This document shows, one piece after another, positions 228-12,310 of a stretch of DNA of 64,000 bases. The stretch is from Algibacter mikhailovii. GTDB taxonomy: Bacteria > Bacteroidota > Bacteroidia > Flavobacteriales > Flavobacteriaceae. Positions within the stretch are counted from its first letter, which is position 1. Each line of letters begins with the position of its first letter. The stretch is taken from NCBI RefSeq assembly GCF_014651495.1, contig NZ_BMWZ01000002.1, forward strand, positions 248,001-312,000. The letters are read 5' to 3'. A program made the translations under genes and the position numbers. A model generated the notes under the pieces. The model had not been told where the DNA came from. It worked only from the letters and a program-made list of their open reading frames with translations, and ran no database searches.

Positions 228-1841
228 ATGGTGAAAATCCTTCAAAGAGTAACCCTAACAAGTAATTCAATTAAAATGAAAAGACACGATGAATGCCGTT
301 GTATATGTCCGCCTTCGCCACAACTTGAGGAGAAAATTAAAAGTACAAAACAGAAAATACTCGGGGAAGCTGGATTTGAAGATATTGATGATATCGATAT
401 TTTAGATATGAGTACATTTACTTTAATAATTAACAGACCCAAAAAAACGCGTGCTCATGATCATGTCATGTCTGCCTCAAGAGCCCCAGTAACAGGAACA
501 AAAAGAGCGTTAGTACTCTTGGTAGATTTCTCGGATAAATCGGCAGTGAAAAACCAAGCTCATTTTAACAACCTCTTGTTTTCCCAAAACACTTATTCAA
601 CGGGTAGTATGCGCGATTTTTATAAGGAAGCATCCTATGGAAAATTAGATGTTACTGGTGCCGTAAAAGGACAGAATGGCGTTACTCCAGGATGGTTTAG
701 AGCACCAAGAGCAAAATCTTATTACACGAATAATGATTTTGGCCATGGTTCTTACCCCCGAAATGCACAGAAGCTTGTTGAGGATGTTATTGATTTAGCA
801 GCCCCTCATGTTAATTTTAGTCCTTATGACAATGATGGCGATGGCTTTGTAGAAGCCTTGATTGTTATTTGTGCTGGATCTGGAGGTGAAGCTACTGGAA
901 ACAAATCAGATTTTTGGTCTCACAAATGGGGTATTTCTCCAAAAACTGTTAATGGGGTTAAAATAAACAAATATTTTATGGCTCCTGAAGATGGTAGAGT
1001 GGGCGTAATGGCTCATGAATTAGGACATTTACTTTGTGGCTTACCTGATCTTTATGACACAGATTACAGCTCAAAAGGCACAGGTAAATGGGACCTTATG
1101 GCCGGCGGAAGCTGGAATAATGGAGGGCATACACCAGCACATCCCTCAGCTTGGTGTAAGGTCAAATGCGGTTGGGTTACACCTACAACTGTTTTTAATG
1201 ACACAAAAAATATTACTTTAAAACCATACCATGTTAATCAAGATATCATAAAACTACCCATAGGGAATGCGAATAGTAAAGAATATTTCTTGCTTTCAAA
1301 CCGACAAAAGCATGGGTTTGATAAAAACATCCCTGGAGAAGGTATGATTATAGAACATATTGACGACCATAAAGGAAATAACACCAATGAAAATCATTAT
1401 TTAGTAGATATAGAGCAGGCAGATGGTCAAAGACACCTTAACACCAATACTAATAGCGGAGACGCAAATGACACTTTTCCTTCAGGAAGTAACAACGCTT
1501 TTACACAGACTTCAAACCCAAACAGTAAGACCTATGCAGGATCAGACTCAAAGGTGAAAGTGACCGCTATCGCTAAATCTGGCAGTAATATTACCGCTAC
1601 CGTCTCTAGTGGATCAGGAGGCACTTCATGGGTAACAAAAAAGGTAACACGAACATACGCCTCACCGCATTCCAAAAATGCTTGGGCTAATCTTCAATCT
1701 ATTGGATGGCGAAAAATTGAAGGAACTTCTATAGATGGTGTTACTAATCTTTTTGTTCTCTTAAATGAAGCTCGAGTTAAAAATAAAATGGTTACCGCTA
1801 GCATAGACAATAATTTTATAAAAATTGCTTATTTAAATTAG
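228..1841 (+). CDS. M6 family metalloprotease without signal peptide
   Basis: Zinc endopeptidase of the immune-inhibitor-A (M6) type, judged from sequence. Visible features are the HELGH zinc motif (residues 263-267), followed by GLPDLYD with D274 as the likely third ligand, a DNDGDG calcium-loop-like stretch near 201-206, and the conserved EHID and IEQADG segments near 375-415. The metal motif has one more residue between HELGH and LPD than the classical HExxHxxGLPD spacing. The last about 70 residues form a separate module that recurs as the next gene. There is no signal peptide, lipobox or T9SS sorting domain, which is unusual because M6 enzymes are normally secreted. Start is uncertain: AAGGAG lies only 1 nt before this ATG; GTG at 231 or ATG at 276 are alternatives. 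Family call is firm; substrate and location are unknown. Confidence 0.85.
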   Translation: MVKILQRVTLTSNSIKMKRHDECRCICPPSPQLEEKIKSTKQKILGEAGFEDIDDIDILDMSTFTLIINRPKKTRAHDHVMSASRAPVTGTKRALVLLVDFSDKSAVKNQAHFNNLLFSQNTYSTGSMRDFYKEASYGKLDVTGAVKGQNGVTPGWFRAPRAKSYYTNNDFGHGSYPRNAQKLVEDVIDLAAPHVNFSPYDNDGDGFVEALIVICAGSGGEATGNKSDFWSHKWGISPKTVNGVKINKYFMAPEDGRVGVMAHELGHLLCGLPDLYDTDYSSKGTGKWDLMAGGSWNNGGHTPAHPSAWCKVKCGWVTPTTVFNDTKNITLKPYHVNQDIIKLPIGNANSKEYFLLSNRQKHGFDKNIPGEGMIIEHIDDHKGNNTNENHYLVDIEQADGQRHLNTNTNSGDANDTFPSGSNNAFTQTSNPNSKTYAGSDSKVKVTAIAKSGSNITATVSSGSGGTSWVTKKVTRTYASPHSKNAWANLQSIGWRKIEGTSIDGVTNLFVLLNEARVKNKMVTASIDNNFIKIAYLN

Positions 1842-1903
1842 ACCAGTGTCAATTTCAGTAATAATAAAATCAAAAAATAATTAATCCTTTAAAAATATAT
1901 ATT

Positions 1904-2122
1904 ATGAATTTTTCTAATAAACAAGTTTTAAGAACTTATGCATCACCTCATTCAAAAAATGCCTGGGCAAATATTCAGAGTATTGGATGGAGAAAAGTAG
2001 GTCAATTAACTACTGATGGAGTTACTAATATGTTTGTAATGCTTAATGCTGCCAAGGCAAATAGCAAAACCGTTTCGGGGACTATAGATGCAAATAATCA
2101 AATTAGCCTATTATATCTTTAA
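1904..2122 (+). CDS. 72-residue protein, free copy of the protease C-terminal module
   Basis: I do not recognise a named family. The protein consists of one module that matches the last about 65 residues of the M6 protease 62 bp upstream: shared blocks are RTYASPHSKNAWAN, QSIGWRK, DGVTN and a closing YL, about 39 of 62 aligned positions identical by hand count. Synonymous codons differ throughout, so the duplication is not recent. The predicted character is a small mixed beta fold with conserved Trp and aromatic residues; there is no signal peptide or membrane segment. Same strand and short spacing suggest co-transcription with the protease. It could be a binding or targeting domain, an inhibitor, or a partner that docks on the protease; nothing in the sequence decides this. 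Confidence 0.75.
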   Translation: MNFSNKQVLRTYASPHSKNAWANIQSIGWRKVGQLTTDGVTNMFVMLNAAKANSKTVSGTIDANNQISLLYL

Positions 2123-2261
2123 GCCACAACAGGTTTTATAGGCATACAAATCATAAAGTCTATTCTTGATTATAGTAGACTATGACAAATCATGATTTTA
2201 TCACATAGGTATAACAAGCAACCTATAAAATCACAAACCATTAAATTAAAAAATTAAAAAT

Positions 2262-2639
2262 ATGATGACAATAAATTTTAATATGGGTAATGACAAAGCA
2301 TTTGAATCAACCATGGAGTCGTATGGCAGTTCACCTGCTCCCATATCCATAAACACCTCTTCCCATGAGGAAATTGAACACGGCGCTCCCTCGCCTGAAA
2401 ATTTTGAAGAAGAACTTCAAGATTCTCAAGGGGCTTCTGCGCCTAGGCCTGAGCACTTTGATGACGCTCCAAACTCCAGTGAAAGCTTAATGCCCTCTCC
2501 TGATTTGGAAGAAGAATCTATGGCTATTGAACATTCAGATCATATGATACCTGAACCTTCAGACATGGAAGAAGTTGCTCCGCCAACAACAACAAAAAAA
2601 ACAACAAAGAAGACAACTTCCAGATCTAAGGCTAAATAA
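2262..2639 (+). CDS. Acidic PxP-repeat protein with Lys/Thr-rich tail
   Basis: Unknown function. The 125-residue protein is strongly acidic and disordered-looking up to about residue 105, then ends in a basic tail of alternating KK and TT pairs (residues 109-125). Five PxP motifs occur at residues 25, 43, 61, 78 and 97, a spacing of 17-19, and four are followed by an acidic patch (for example PSPENFEEE and PRPEHFDD), so the body is a degenerate 18-residue repeat. No cysteine, signal peptide or membrane helix is present. ATG at 2262 is followed directly by a second ATG at 2265. It lies in the protease cluster and is followed by a strong terminator, suggesting it closes that transcription unit. 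Base composition and codon use are compatible with a real gene but homologues were not recognised. Confidence 0.6.
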   Translation: MMTINFNMGNDKAFESTMESYGSSPAPISINTSSHEEIEHGAPSPENFEEELQDSQGASAPRPEHFDDAPNSSESLMPSPDLEEESMAIEHSDHMIPEPSDMEEVAPPTTTKKTTKKTTSRSKAK

Positions 2640-2664: not shown

Positions 2665-2700
2665 TTAACCTGAACCTTGAGCCAAGGTTCAGGTTAATTT
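2665..2700 (+). terminator. Rho-independent terminator after the PxP-repeat gene
   Basis: Perfect 15-bp inverted repeat (arms 2665-2679 and 2683-2697) with a 3-nt loop, flanked by a T run on each side. It sits 25 bp after the stop of the acidic repeat gene and 8 bp before the next start codon, so it separates the 97-residue gene from the three genes before it. Confidence 0.8.
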
Positions 2701-2707
2701 ACTAAAT

Positions 2708-3001
2708 ATGCTGAATATGCAACTTGCACCAAACAAAACATCCATTGAAGCAACGGTAACCGCATTATCAAACAACCAAGAAGAGATTAGTGTTGTCATA
2801 ATAAAACTACCGCCTGAAAAACCTTTACCTGCCTTTCTACATCAAGGAAAAATGGTTAAGGCAAAAAACCTATCGCCTACCAATAATACAATAGAGTTAC
2901 AAATAGGCGATATTATAAACGCAGAAATAGAGGTTATGGGAGATCCTTTTACACAAACCTATTTACTTCATAATATTTCAAAAGCCAAGGACTCCCTTTG
3001 A
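2708..3001 (+). CDS. 97-residue hypothetical protein
   Basis: I do not recognise this protein. It lacks a signal peptide, membrane segment and cysteine. Alternating hydrophobic residues through most of its length (for example EISVVIIKL and TIELQIGDIINAEIEVMG) suggest a small beta-rich or OB-like fold. It begins 8 bp after a strong hairpin terminator, so it needs either its own promoter or read-through from the M6 protease cluster. ATG at 2708 is the first start; an in-frame ATG at 2717 is an alternative. It ends 41 bp before the convergent gamma-carbonic-anhydrase-like gene, with no clear terminator between them. Confidence 0.6.
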   Translation: MLNMQLAPNKTSIEATVTALSNNQEEISVVIIKLPPEKPLPAFLHQGKMVKAKNLSPTNNTIELQIGDIINAEIEVMGDPFTQTYLLHNISKAKDSL

Positions 3002-8949: not shown

Positions 8950-11055
8950 ATGACATATCTCAAAATATTTATAGCAGTTCTTTTACTTACAGGTTGTAAA
9001 GGCAAGAATTCAGAGCCCATGGAACATCCATATACCAATAATTTAATAAATGAATCGAGCCCCTATTTATTGCAGCATGCACACAATCCAGTAAACTGGA
9101 ATCCATGGAATGAAAAAACACTTGATCAGGCCAAATCAGAAAAAAAGTTAATTCTCATTAGTGTTGGGTATGCCGCTTGCCACTGGTGTCATGTTATGGA
9201 ACATGAGAGTTTTGAAGACAGTTTAGTAGCACAAGTAATGAATAAGAATTTCATTAATATTAAAGTAGATCGCGAAGAACGGCCTGATGTAGATCAAGTT
9301 TATATGAGTGCAGTGCAACTGATGACTGGTAGTGGAGGTTGGCCAATGAATGTTATTGCTCTTCCTGATGGTAGACCTGTTTGGGGAGGAACCTATTTTG
9401 AAAAAGATCAATGGTTAAGTGCACTTGAACAAATCTCTAAGTTATATGAAGAAGATCCCAACAAACTTCTGGAATATGCTGATAAACTAGAACAAGGTAT
9501 AAAATCGCTTGGTGTAGTTGCCTTAAATAATGAAACCCCAAAATTTGAAAAAACCTTTATCGATAAGGCTTTAGAAAATTGGACAAATCAGTTTGATCAT
9601 GAACTCGGAGGCTTAAGTAATGTGCCCAAATTTATGATGCCCAATAACTATCATTTTTTATTGAGATATGCCTATCAAACTGATGACAAAATGCTCCAAG
9701 ATTACGTTAATTTAACACTAAAAAAAATGGCGTATGGTGGCATCTTTGATCAAATAGGTGGAGGATTTTCTAGATATTCGGTTGATGCGAAATGGCATGT
9801 TCCTCATTTTGAAAAAATGCTTTATGATAATGGTCAGTTAGTTAGTTTGTATGCTGATGCTTACCTCATCATGAAAGATGAATTATATAAAAATATTGTT
9901 ACCCAAACATTGGAATATGTTCAAAATGAAATGACCACTGAAAATGGTGCATTCTATTCTTCCTTAGACGCTGACAGCACTACTCAAGCTGGCGAACTAG
10001 AAGAAGGTGCCTTTTATATCTGGACGGAAGATGAGCTTAAATCTCTTCTAAAAGAAGATTTTGATCTCTTCTCCGATTACTATAATGTGAACAATTATGG
10101 CGCATGGGAGCATAATAATTATGTCTTGATTAGAAAAGAAGATGACGCATCCATAATAAAAAAACATCAAATAGACGCCAATACCCTATCATCAAAAATA
10201 GAAAACTGGAAAACAGTACTCCTTAAAGAACGTAACAAAAGGGCTAAACCTAGATTAGATGATAAAACCCTGACGTCTTGGAATGCATTAATGCTTAAAG
10301 GTTATGTAGATGCCTATCGTGTTTTTGGCAATAAGGAATACCTAGATTCTGCTATAAAAAACGCAACGTTTATTATAGAAAACCAGCTGAGAGCAGATGG
10401 CGGCCTCAACCACACGTATAAAAACGGGGTTAGCAAAATCAATGGCTATCTGGAAGATTATGCCGCAACTATTGATGCCTTTATTGCCCTTTATGAAAAC
10501 ACCTTAAATGAACAATGGCTAAATAAGGCTAAGGAGTTAAGCGATTATAGTTTTAATCATTATTTTGACAAGTCGAGTAGTATGTTCTTTTTTACATCCA
10601 ATGAAGACGAATCCTTAGTAGCTAGAAGCACAGAATACCGAGATAATGTTATACCAGCTAGCAACTCCATCATGGCTAAAAATCTATTTAAGTTATCCCA
10701 CTTTTTTGACAATACCCATTATGCACAAACTGCTATAACCATGCTTAACAACGTTAAACCCGAAATGCAAGAGTATCCCTCTGGCTACTCTAATTGGTTT
10801 GATTTAATGTTGAATTACACCCAACCTTATTATGAAGTGGCCATAGTTGGTAAAGAGGCTAAGGATAAAATTAACGACTTAAACAAAACTTATATCCCAA
10901 ATAAATTGATTGTAGGTAGCGTTTCAGAAAACAATATGCCTTTATTGAAAAATAGATATAATCCTGAAAAAACGCTAATATATGTGTGCGTAAACAAGGC
11001 CTGCAAACTACCTGTGTCAGATATTAATGAGGCTATAAAACTTTTAAAAGAATGA
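8950..11055 (+). CDS. Thioredoxin-domain lipoprotein (DUF255, YyaL/SPATA20 type)
   Basis: Homologue of the DUF255/YyaL family: an N-terminal thioredoxin-like domain followed by an alpha/alpha six-barrel resembling glycosidases or epimerases. Visible signs are a short lipoprotein signal with lipobox LLTGC (C16), the family motif [14 protein letters not shown] (about 37-50), the redox-like motif CHWC (77-80) in [23 protein letters not shown], and SGGWPMNV. The 701-residue length is normal for the family. The lipobox means it is membrane anchored, which is noteworthy because many family members are cytosolic. Biochemical role is not established. Its stop overlaps the start of the DUF1304 gene by 4 bp. 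Confidence 0.9.
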
Positions 11056-11405
11056 GTGTTTTAACTATCATATTAATTTGTATAGTAGCCCTAGAGCATA
11101 TCTATTTTCTGATTTTAGAAATGTTTTTATGGACTACGCCAAAGGGCATTAAAGCCTTTGGTTTAAAATCAAAACAGTTTGCAGAAGACACAAAAGTATT
11201 GGCCGCCAATCAAGGACTATATAACGGTTTTTTAGCTCTTGGTCTAATATTTTCTGTCATAGAAAAAGATTTAAGATATGCCGTTTTTTTTCTATTTTGT
11301 GTGACTATCGCCGGCATTTTTGGTGCTTACTCAACAAAGCAAATTAAATTATTCTACATTCAAGCGATTCCCGCAATATTGGCCTTAGTGAGCTGCATAT
11401 TATAA
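11052..11405 (+). CDS. DUF1304 integral membrane protein
   Basis: Small membrane protein with about four predicted helices (roughly residues 3-24, 50-70, 76-95, 98-116). Recognised from the DUF1304 pattern: [13 protein letters not shown] near residues 14-26, [11 protein letters not shown] near 54-64 and GIFGAYS near 85-91. Function is unknown. The ATG overlaps the stop of the upstream DUF255 gene (ATGA), indicating translational coupling and a shared transcript. Confidence 0.85.
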
Positions 11406-11485
11406 AAAACAATGATAATTCACTTTAAGTTAAAAAAAAACATTAAATAGTTTTAATTTTACATATCTAATAAATTAAAAAAAAT

Positions 11486-12310
11486 ATGGATTTAGAAAAC
11501 ATTGACACATCAAAATGGGCTGACTTAGCCTTAGATTATGGCGTAGAATACGGACTTAAAATTCTTGCAGCTGCCGCCATATGGATTATTGGTTCTTGGA
11601 TTATCAAAAAATTACTAAAAGGCACTAAAAATTTTATGTCTAAAAGTAGTTATGAGGAAAGTCTTCAGAAGTTTTTATTAAACTTATTAAACTGGGTTTT
11701 AAAAATTGTATTAATTGTTATTGTTCTTGGAACAGTTGGCATTGAAACCACTTCATTTGCTGCATTAATTGCTGCTGCAGGTTTAGCCATTGGTTTAGCA
11801 TTACAAGGTTCTTTAGGTAATTTTGCCGGGGGAGTTTTGATTATGATTTTTAAGCCATTTAAACTTGGTGATTTAATTGAAGCTCAAGGTGAAATTGGTG
11901 TTGTAAAAGAAATTGAAATATTCACTACCAAACTTACGGGCTTATCAAATAAAGAAATTATTATTCCTAATGGTTCATTATCCAACGGAAATATAGTTAA
12001 TTATAGTACAGAAGGTACGCGTCGTGTAGACCTTACCATTGGAGTAAGCTATGAGGCAGATATCAAGAAAACTAAAGAGATATTAATGGAAGTCCTTACC
12101 TCTGACCCGAAGGTTCTAAAAGACCCAGCACCCTCTGTAAATGTTTCAGAGCTTGCTGATAGCTCTGTGAATTTTGCAGTAAGACCTTGGAGTACTACCG
12201 CAGATTACTGGGATGTTTATTTTGGTATAACAGAAAAGGCTAAAATAGCTTTAGATAAAGCTGGTATAGAAATTCCTTTCCCACAGGTAGTAGTTCACAA
12301 AAACAGCTAA
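11486..12310 (+). CDS. Small-conductance mechanosensitive channel (MscS family)
   Basis: Inner-membrane osmotic-release channel. Three N-terminal helices are predicted (about 20-42, 63-85, 88-118); the third contains the pore motif with small residues, GLAIGLALQGSLGNFAGG, followed by the beta domain segment FKPFKLGD and the conserved IPNG. The 274-residue length fits the minimal MscS type. The gene converges with tsaB and their ends overlap by 4 bp (12307-12310): the TAA of this gene and the TAG of tsaB share bases. A perfect 15-bp hairpin 51 bp past the stop, inside tsaB, is the only visible terminator candidate. Confidence 0.93.
   Translation: MDLENIDTSKWADLALDYGVEYGLKILAAAAIWIIGSWIIKKLLKGTKNFMSKSSYEESLQKFLLNLLNWVLKIVLIVIVLGTVGIETTSFAALIAAAGLAIGLALQGSLGNFAGGVLIMIFKPFKLGDLIEAQGEIGVVKEIEIFTTKLTGLSNKEIIIPNGSLSNGNIVNYSTEGTRRVDLTIGVSYEADIKKTKEILMEVLTSDPKVLKDPAPSVNVSELADSSVNFAVRPWSTTADYWDVYFGITEKAKIALDKAGIEIPFPQVVVHKNS

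What the first reader, a model, noticed from the sequence alone, without database searches (positions are those of the whole stretch)
228..2639. Compact unfamiliar cluster: M6 protease, free-standing copy of its own C-terminal module, and an acidic repeat protein
Three same-strand genes closed by a strong terminator. The protease has no signal peptide, no lipobox and no T9SS domain although M6 enzymes normally act outside the cell. Its last 70 residues are repeated as a separate 72-residue gene 62 bp away (RTYASPHSKNAWAN and QSIGWRK shared). The third gene encodes a repeat protein with a basic tail. A protease plus its detached module plus a repetitive acidic protein could be an enzyme-inhibitor-substrate or enzyme-scaffold-substrate set. 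The unit is the most accessory-looking part of the window. Function is inference.
Basis: partly seen in the sequence, partly recalled or inferred. Interest (0 to 1): 0.78.

Follow-up and report, generated by a model that had tools for sequence, protein, structure and literature searches.

The report
Module-tagged protease cassette with predicted inhibitor

Summary
The M6 protease, its 67-residue C-terminal module, the free 72-residue copy and the acidic repeat protein are all present. A fourth gene, 2708-3001, belongs to the set but was left out as lying beyond the hairpin. The module matched nothing convincing in Pfam, NCBIfam, PHROGs, PADLOC or PDB, yet 37 further genomes encode it, always at least twice. 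It forms the extreme C-terminus of M6, astacin, papain, matrixin and one subtilase-type protease, all without a signal peptide, with a free copy usually adjacent (median gap 23 bp). Each main protease class travels with its own small partner family: papain with chagasin (a known papain inhibitor) 13/14, astacin 11/11, M6 12/13, matrixin 4/4, and none without its class. The window's fourth gene is the M6 partner, hence a predicted M6 inhibitor. AlphaFold gives the module a confident OB fold resembling ring-forming B subunits and CipA. Best reading: unexported proteases, kept in check by dedicated inhibitors and assembled through a shared module. The inhibitor-substrate idea for genes 2 and 3 is not supported; enzyme-scaffold fits. 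A contractile-injection link is suggestive: the cassette abuts an eCIS in Marinobacter, but many carriers have no detected tube gene.

The parts
276..1841 (+). M6 metalloprotease with C-terminal module (ORF open from 228; likely start ATG 276)
   Evidence: Pfam PF05547 E 5e-25 and TIGR03296 E 9e-73; start inferred from relatives beginning near C-x-x-PPSP; no signal peptide
309..338 (+). N-terminal PPSPQLEEKI motif preceded by Cys-x-Cys-x-Cys, conserved in M6 relatives; resembles the repeat of the acidic protein; possible cysteine switch
   Evidence: role is inference
1014..1028 (+). HELGH zinc-binding and catalytic motif, intact
   Evidence: sequence
1635..1838 (+). C-terminal module copy (b3-a-b2 OB fold) at the extreme C-terminus of the protease
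1904..2122 (+). free-standing 72-aa module
   Evidence: AlphaFold2 pLDDT 94; fold search
2262..2639 (+). acidic, low-complexity protein (125 aa) with five P-x-P repeats and a basic KKTTKKTTSRSKAK tail; candidate multivalent scaffold
   Evidence: counterparts in many other cassettes
2665..2697 (+). 15-bp hairpin between genes 3 and 4, weak U-tract; attenuator or terminator
2708..3001 (+). 97-aa M6-matched partner (family g3), predicted OB barrel, predicted M6 inhibitor
   Evidence: found in 12 of 13 M6 cassettes and in none of 23 without M6; AlphaFold2 pLDDT 83.5

Best explanation
The window holds one instance of a mobile, phylogenetically wide cassette that makes an unexported protease complex. 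(1) A protease of the M6 family, made without a signal peptide, carries a C-terminal OB-fold module. (2) The free 72-aa module co-assembles with the protease's module, most likely as a small ring or similar oligomer in which free copies fill the seats not taken by protease-linked copies. (3) The acidic P-x-P-repeat protein is a multivalent tether or scaffold for that assembly, since similar short P-x-P motifs also occur at the N-terminus of the M6 proteases and of some papain-type ones. (4) The fourth gene, 2708-3001, encodes a dedicated inhibitor of the M6 catalytic domain that protects the producer until the complex is released or delivered. Shown by computation: the gene set, its recurrence, the class-matched partners, the lack of signal peptides, the module's predicted fold. 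Inferred: inhibition, oligomerisation, tethering, and release by lysis or by a contractile injection system.
For: Module-bearing proteases fall into M6, M12A, C1A, M10A and S8. All 37 further genomes have at least two module copies, nearly always adjacent, median gap 23 bp, with 73 of 82 modules ending 0-1 residue before the stop codon. Partner matching: C1A with I42 13/14 versus 0/22 loci without C1A (P 6e-9), M12A with g2 11/11 versus 0/25 (2e-9), M6 with g3 12/13 versus 0/23 (1e-8), M10 with g7 4/4 versus 0/32 (2e-5); loci with both M6 and astacin carry both partners. I42 chagasin is confirmed by Pfam (E about 1e-21) and is a known papain-family inhibitor (PMC2607524). Partners are kept even where encoded on the opposite strand (L095, L111, L113, L116, L127). 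Free and fused modules form old, largely separate lineages (10 label changes versus 26 shuffled). Module fold. Block absent between the same neighbours in G001 and G007.
Against: No complex was modelled or measured. The g3 profile hits nothing in Pfam or the PDB by sequence, and its fold match is a generic OB barrel. Ring formation rests on fold analogy only: Foldseek E is 0.018 or worse and OB is a superfold. One S8 cassette, one divergent M6 cassette (L115) and one papain cassette at a locus edge (L080) lack a recognised partner. Partner HMMs were partly built from the same loci. Disorder of the acidic protein is judged from composition, not from a predictor. An acidic protein was not found automatically in every cassette.
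Confidence: 0.62

Rival explanations
1. The cassette makes effector proteases of a contractile injection system: module, free module and PxP protein are loading or adaptor parts, and the small partner is the immunity protein.
For: In Marinobacter sp. X15-166B the module, an acidic ORF and the M6 protease lie between a sigma-54 activator and eCIS sheath, gp19-like tube, Pvc16 and eCIS_core genes. In G102 a gp19-like tube gene is in the papain cassette. Tube genes are enriched: 6 of 9 gammaproteobacterial carriers versus 18 of 184 of their class, P 1e-4; 4 of 7 without the index case and duplicate, P 4e-3. Protease families that normally act outside the cell, made without signal peptides, fit cargo.
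Against: 20 of 37 carrier genomes show no tube hit (some are incomplete MAGs); most cassettes are far from the CIS; Bacteroidota have tubes in about 25% of genomes anyway. The window's own genome has only an isolated tube pair and a broken remnant.
Confidence: 0.3
2. Intracellular storage or crystal-like inclusion of latent proteases, released at lysis as a shared weapon or scavenging enzyme; the module is a CipA-like self-assembling subunit.
For: CipA (7xhs) is among the best fold matches and is a b3-a-b2 OB protein that tetramerises and forms crystals inside Photorhabdus cells (PMC9530169).
Against: Fold analogy only; no sequence relation in the PDB search.
Confidence: 0.25
3. Anti-phage or programmed-death protease unlocked from its inhibitor by an infection cue.
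For: Patchy distribution; block present in one genome and absent from the same site in relatives; caspase-family genes next to the Deinococcus plasmid cassette.
Against: No PADLOC hit; no sensor or NTPase recurs next to the cassettes.
Confidence: 0.12
4. One reading: the free module inhibits the protease and the acidic protein is its substrate.
For: Adjacency and sequence identity of the module.
Against: The same module accompanies metallo-, cysteine and serine proteases; a separate class-matched inhibitor candidate exists in almost every locus, a proven inhibitor family in the papain case.
Confidence: 0.05

Closest known systems
KLIKK proteases and potempins of Tannerella forsythia (PMC4404884, PMC7296668)
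   Same: Proteases of different catalytic types share one C-terminal domain, and each is encoded next to a small inhibitor specific for it
   Different: KLIKK proteases are secreted by T9SS and potempins are lipoproteins; here there is no signal peptide and no T9SS domain, the module has an OB fold, a free copy and a PxP-repeat protein are added, and carriers span many phyla including an archaeon
Chagasin (I42) paired with C1A papain-like proteases
   Same: The papain-class cassettes carry genuine I42 genes
   Different: Here the pair is embedded in a module cassette; the other classes use unrelated partner families
AB5-type B subunits and CipA (OB fold)
   Same: Predicted b3-a-b2 topology, Foldseek prob about 1.0, TM 0.65-0.78
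   Different: No sequence similarity, 72 aa, no signal peptide, fused to proteases; fold-level resemblance only
Extracellular contractile injection system (eCIS) effectors
   Same: Cassette adjacent to an eCIS in Marinobacter, tube gene in the G102 cassette
   Different: Many carriers have no CIS tube; no known eCIS packaging signal was tested

Membership tests
Peptidase family M6 | M6 catalytic domain above curated cut-off with HExxH | tested here: met
   PF05547 88.7 bits (cut-off 22), TIGR03296 245.6 (cut-off 110.8); HELGH at 1014-1028
KLIKK/potempin system | Shared C-terminal domain across protease classes | tested here: met
   five classes share the module
KLIKK/potempin system | Signal peptide and secretion by T9SS with the shared C-terminal domain | tested here: not met
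   no N-terminal hydrophobic segment; no T9SS domain in the Pfam/NCBIfam scans
KLIKK/potempin system | Adjacent inhibitor proven to inhibit its protease | not testable with these tools
   class matching shown, inhibition not measured
I42 chagasin (papain-class cassettes only) | I42 profile above cut-off | tested here: met
   77.0 and 75.6 bits, cut-off 27.2
AB5 B subunit / CipA | OB fold with central helix | tested here: met
   AlphaFold2 pLDDT 94, E E E H E E; Foldseek, E not below 0.018
AB5 B subunit / CipA | Sequence relationship | tested here: not met
   profile finds no PDB chain at E <= 1
AB5 B subunit / CipA | Ring oligomer | not testable with these tools
   no multi-chain prediction available
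eCIS effector | Encoded in or next to a CIS locus | tested here: inconclusive
   true in Marinobacter; a tube gene in the G102 cassette; not true in most
Known anti-phage defence system | PADLOC model match | tested here: not met
   no hits

The most novel reading that the evidence does not exclude
A general, unnamed protease-assembly platform: a small ring-forming OB subunit that recruits unrelated proteases by carrying one fused copy per enzyme, tethered by a PxP-repeat protein and held off by class-specific inhibitors (including three undescribed metalloprotease-inhibitor families), used as releasable or CIS-delivered cargo.
Probability: 0.3. Interest if true: 0.92.

Novelty: new variant of a known kind. 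Interest (0 to 1): 0.78.

Why it matters
It would give dedicated bacterial inhibitors for M6, astacin and matrixin proteases, a general way to tag unrelated proteases with one assembly module, and an immediate functional handle on an uncharacterised family found from Bacteroidota to an archaeon. The chagasin-papain pairs act as an internal control that makes the inhibitor prediction for the other three partner families directly testable.

Tried and rejected
Pfam, NCBIfam, PHROGs, PADLOC and PDB sequence searches for the module: nothing convincing (the weak Phage_TTP_12 hit at E 0.07 and single-member PHROG hits at E 0.004 or worse were not pursued). IMG/VR and phage records: no relative, so no sign of a phage gene set. 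CIS co-occurrence in Bacteroidota was first taken as a link, then discounted because 25% of the phylum's sampled genomes have the tube gene. Free module as inhibitor: rejected because it is shared by metallo-, cysteine and serine proteases. g3 fold search: OB barrels with complement C345C/netrin-type domains among the hits, too generic to claim a TIMP-like inhibitor. BFVD search of the module: no meaningful match. T9SS-dependent M6 model NF052323: far below cut-off (59.6 of 600). Literature searches found no description of the cassette, within an open-access library only.

Full report
What is there. The three ORFs are as described. The protease matches the M6 catalytic domain and keeps HELGH. 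Its last 67 residues and the 72-aa ORF are 62% identical (E 3e-23). The third ORF is acidic (pI 4.45) with five P-x-P repeats against 1.1 in shuffles and a Lys/Arg-rich tail. The hairpin after it is strong (-21.6 kcal/mol, z -5.9) but lacks a good U-tract, and a 97-aa ORF follows at 2708-3001.

It is an accessory block. In a congener (G001) and another family member (G007) the flanking genes, a glutamate racemase-like gene and a hexapeptide-repeat protein, lie side by side; in this genome the cassette and a 230-aa regulator-like gene sit between them. Gain here is the simplest reading; loss in both relatives is not excluded. Among 149 relatives only G102 also had the module, and 3 of 395 genomes of the phylum, this one included, have a match, one of them weak.

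The module is a widespread, unnamed family. A pattern scan of about 85,000 species genomes followed by profile search gave 35 carrier genomes beside G102 and G354; a Deinococcus plasmid adds another. Carriers include Pseudomonadota, Actinomycetota, Chloroflexota, Acidobacteriota, Cyanobacteriota and the archaeon Methanoculleus. Every one of the 37 genomes has at least two copies: one or two fused to the C-terminus of a protease and one free, median gap 23 bp. 73 of 82 module copies end within one residue of the stop codon. The proteases are M6, astacin, papain, matrixin and one subtilase, none with an N-terminal signal-like segment. Free and fused copies are old, largely separate lineages.

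Class-matched partners. Scanning 36 cassettes with profiles of the small neighbours gave papain with I42 chagasin 13/14, astacin with g2 11/11, M6 with g3 12/13, matrixin with g7 4/4, and no partner in any cassette lacking its class. Seven cassettes or genomes with both M6 and astacin have both partners; in most of these a single free module serves both enzymes. Chagasins are established papain-family inhibitors (PMC2607524), so the other three families are predicted inhibitors by position. The window's 2708-3001 is a g3 member. g2 shows remote similarity to YscW (E 9e-9 for one member) and to PDB 5wec (E 3e-7); g3 and g7 match nothing by sequence.

Structures. The module is predicted with high confidence (pLDDT 94) as strands 1-3, a helix, strands 4-5. 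The closest solved folds are B subunits of the enterotoxin type and CipA (TM 0.65-0.78, prob about 1.0, E 0.018 or worse). In CipA this fold tetramerises around the helix and strands 1 and 5 (PMC9530169). This is analogy of fold, not membership. The g3 protein is predicted as a five-stranded OB barrel (pLDDT 83.5) with generic OB matches.

Acidic protein. Many cassettes have a counterpart with repeated P-x-P motifs, usually acidic and often with a basic tail. In papain cassettes the free module itself carries a low-complexity N-terminal tail. The M6 proteases start with a PPSP-[EDQ]-L motif, and some papain-class proteases carry P-x-P-[DE] near their N-terminus; whether the module binds this motif is untested.

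Contractile injection. In Marinobacter sp. X15-166B the cassette lies between a sigma-54 activator and eCIS sheath, tube, Pvc16 and eCIS_core genes. In G102 a tube gene lies in the same gene run. Among gammaproteobacterial carriers the tube is enriched (6/9 versus 18/184, P 1e-4), but 20 of 37 carriers show none, so CIS delivery is unlikely to be the general mechanism.

Comparison with the known. The nearest described arrangement is the KLIKK/potempin set of Tannerella (PMC4404884, PMC7296668): different protease classes, one shared C-terminal domain, one specific inhibitor each. The present set works like it in outline but fails its secretion features, and adds a free module and a repeat protein. 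It is therefore not filed as a member.

Verdict.

Noticed in passing
G000:C1:395094-395896 (L013:9022-9926): Two adjacent CIS-type tube genes with no sheath or baseplate genes recognised nearby
   Followed up: partly
G000:C6:353243-353581 (L014 about 9243-9581, VgrG-like ORF at 10494-12287): Tube-gene fragments with stop codons beside VgrG-like, PAAR-like and a 1019-aa ORF: probable CIS remnant
   Followed up: no
L118:8014-8385 and L119:9578-9946: g3 homologues of Psychromonas and Vibrio have a hydrophobic N-terminal extension ending VSA-APN, possibly a signal peptide, unlike the window copy
   Followed up: no
L021:13061-20042: Two caspase-family genes follow the papain cassette on a Deinococcus aetherius plasmid
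   Followed up: no
L006:17763-18577 (G102): CIS-type tube gene and an unknown 128-aa ORF in the papain cassette, with no sheath nearby
   Followed up: partly
L007:537-1385 (G102): Second papain-like gene without a module just upstream of the tagged one
   Followed up: no
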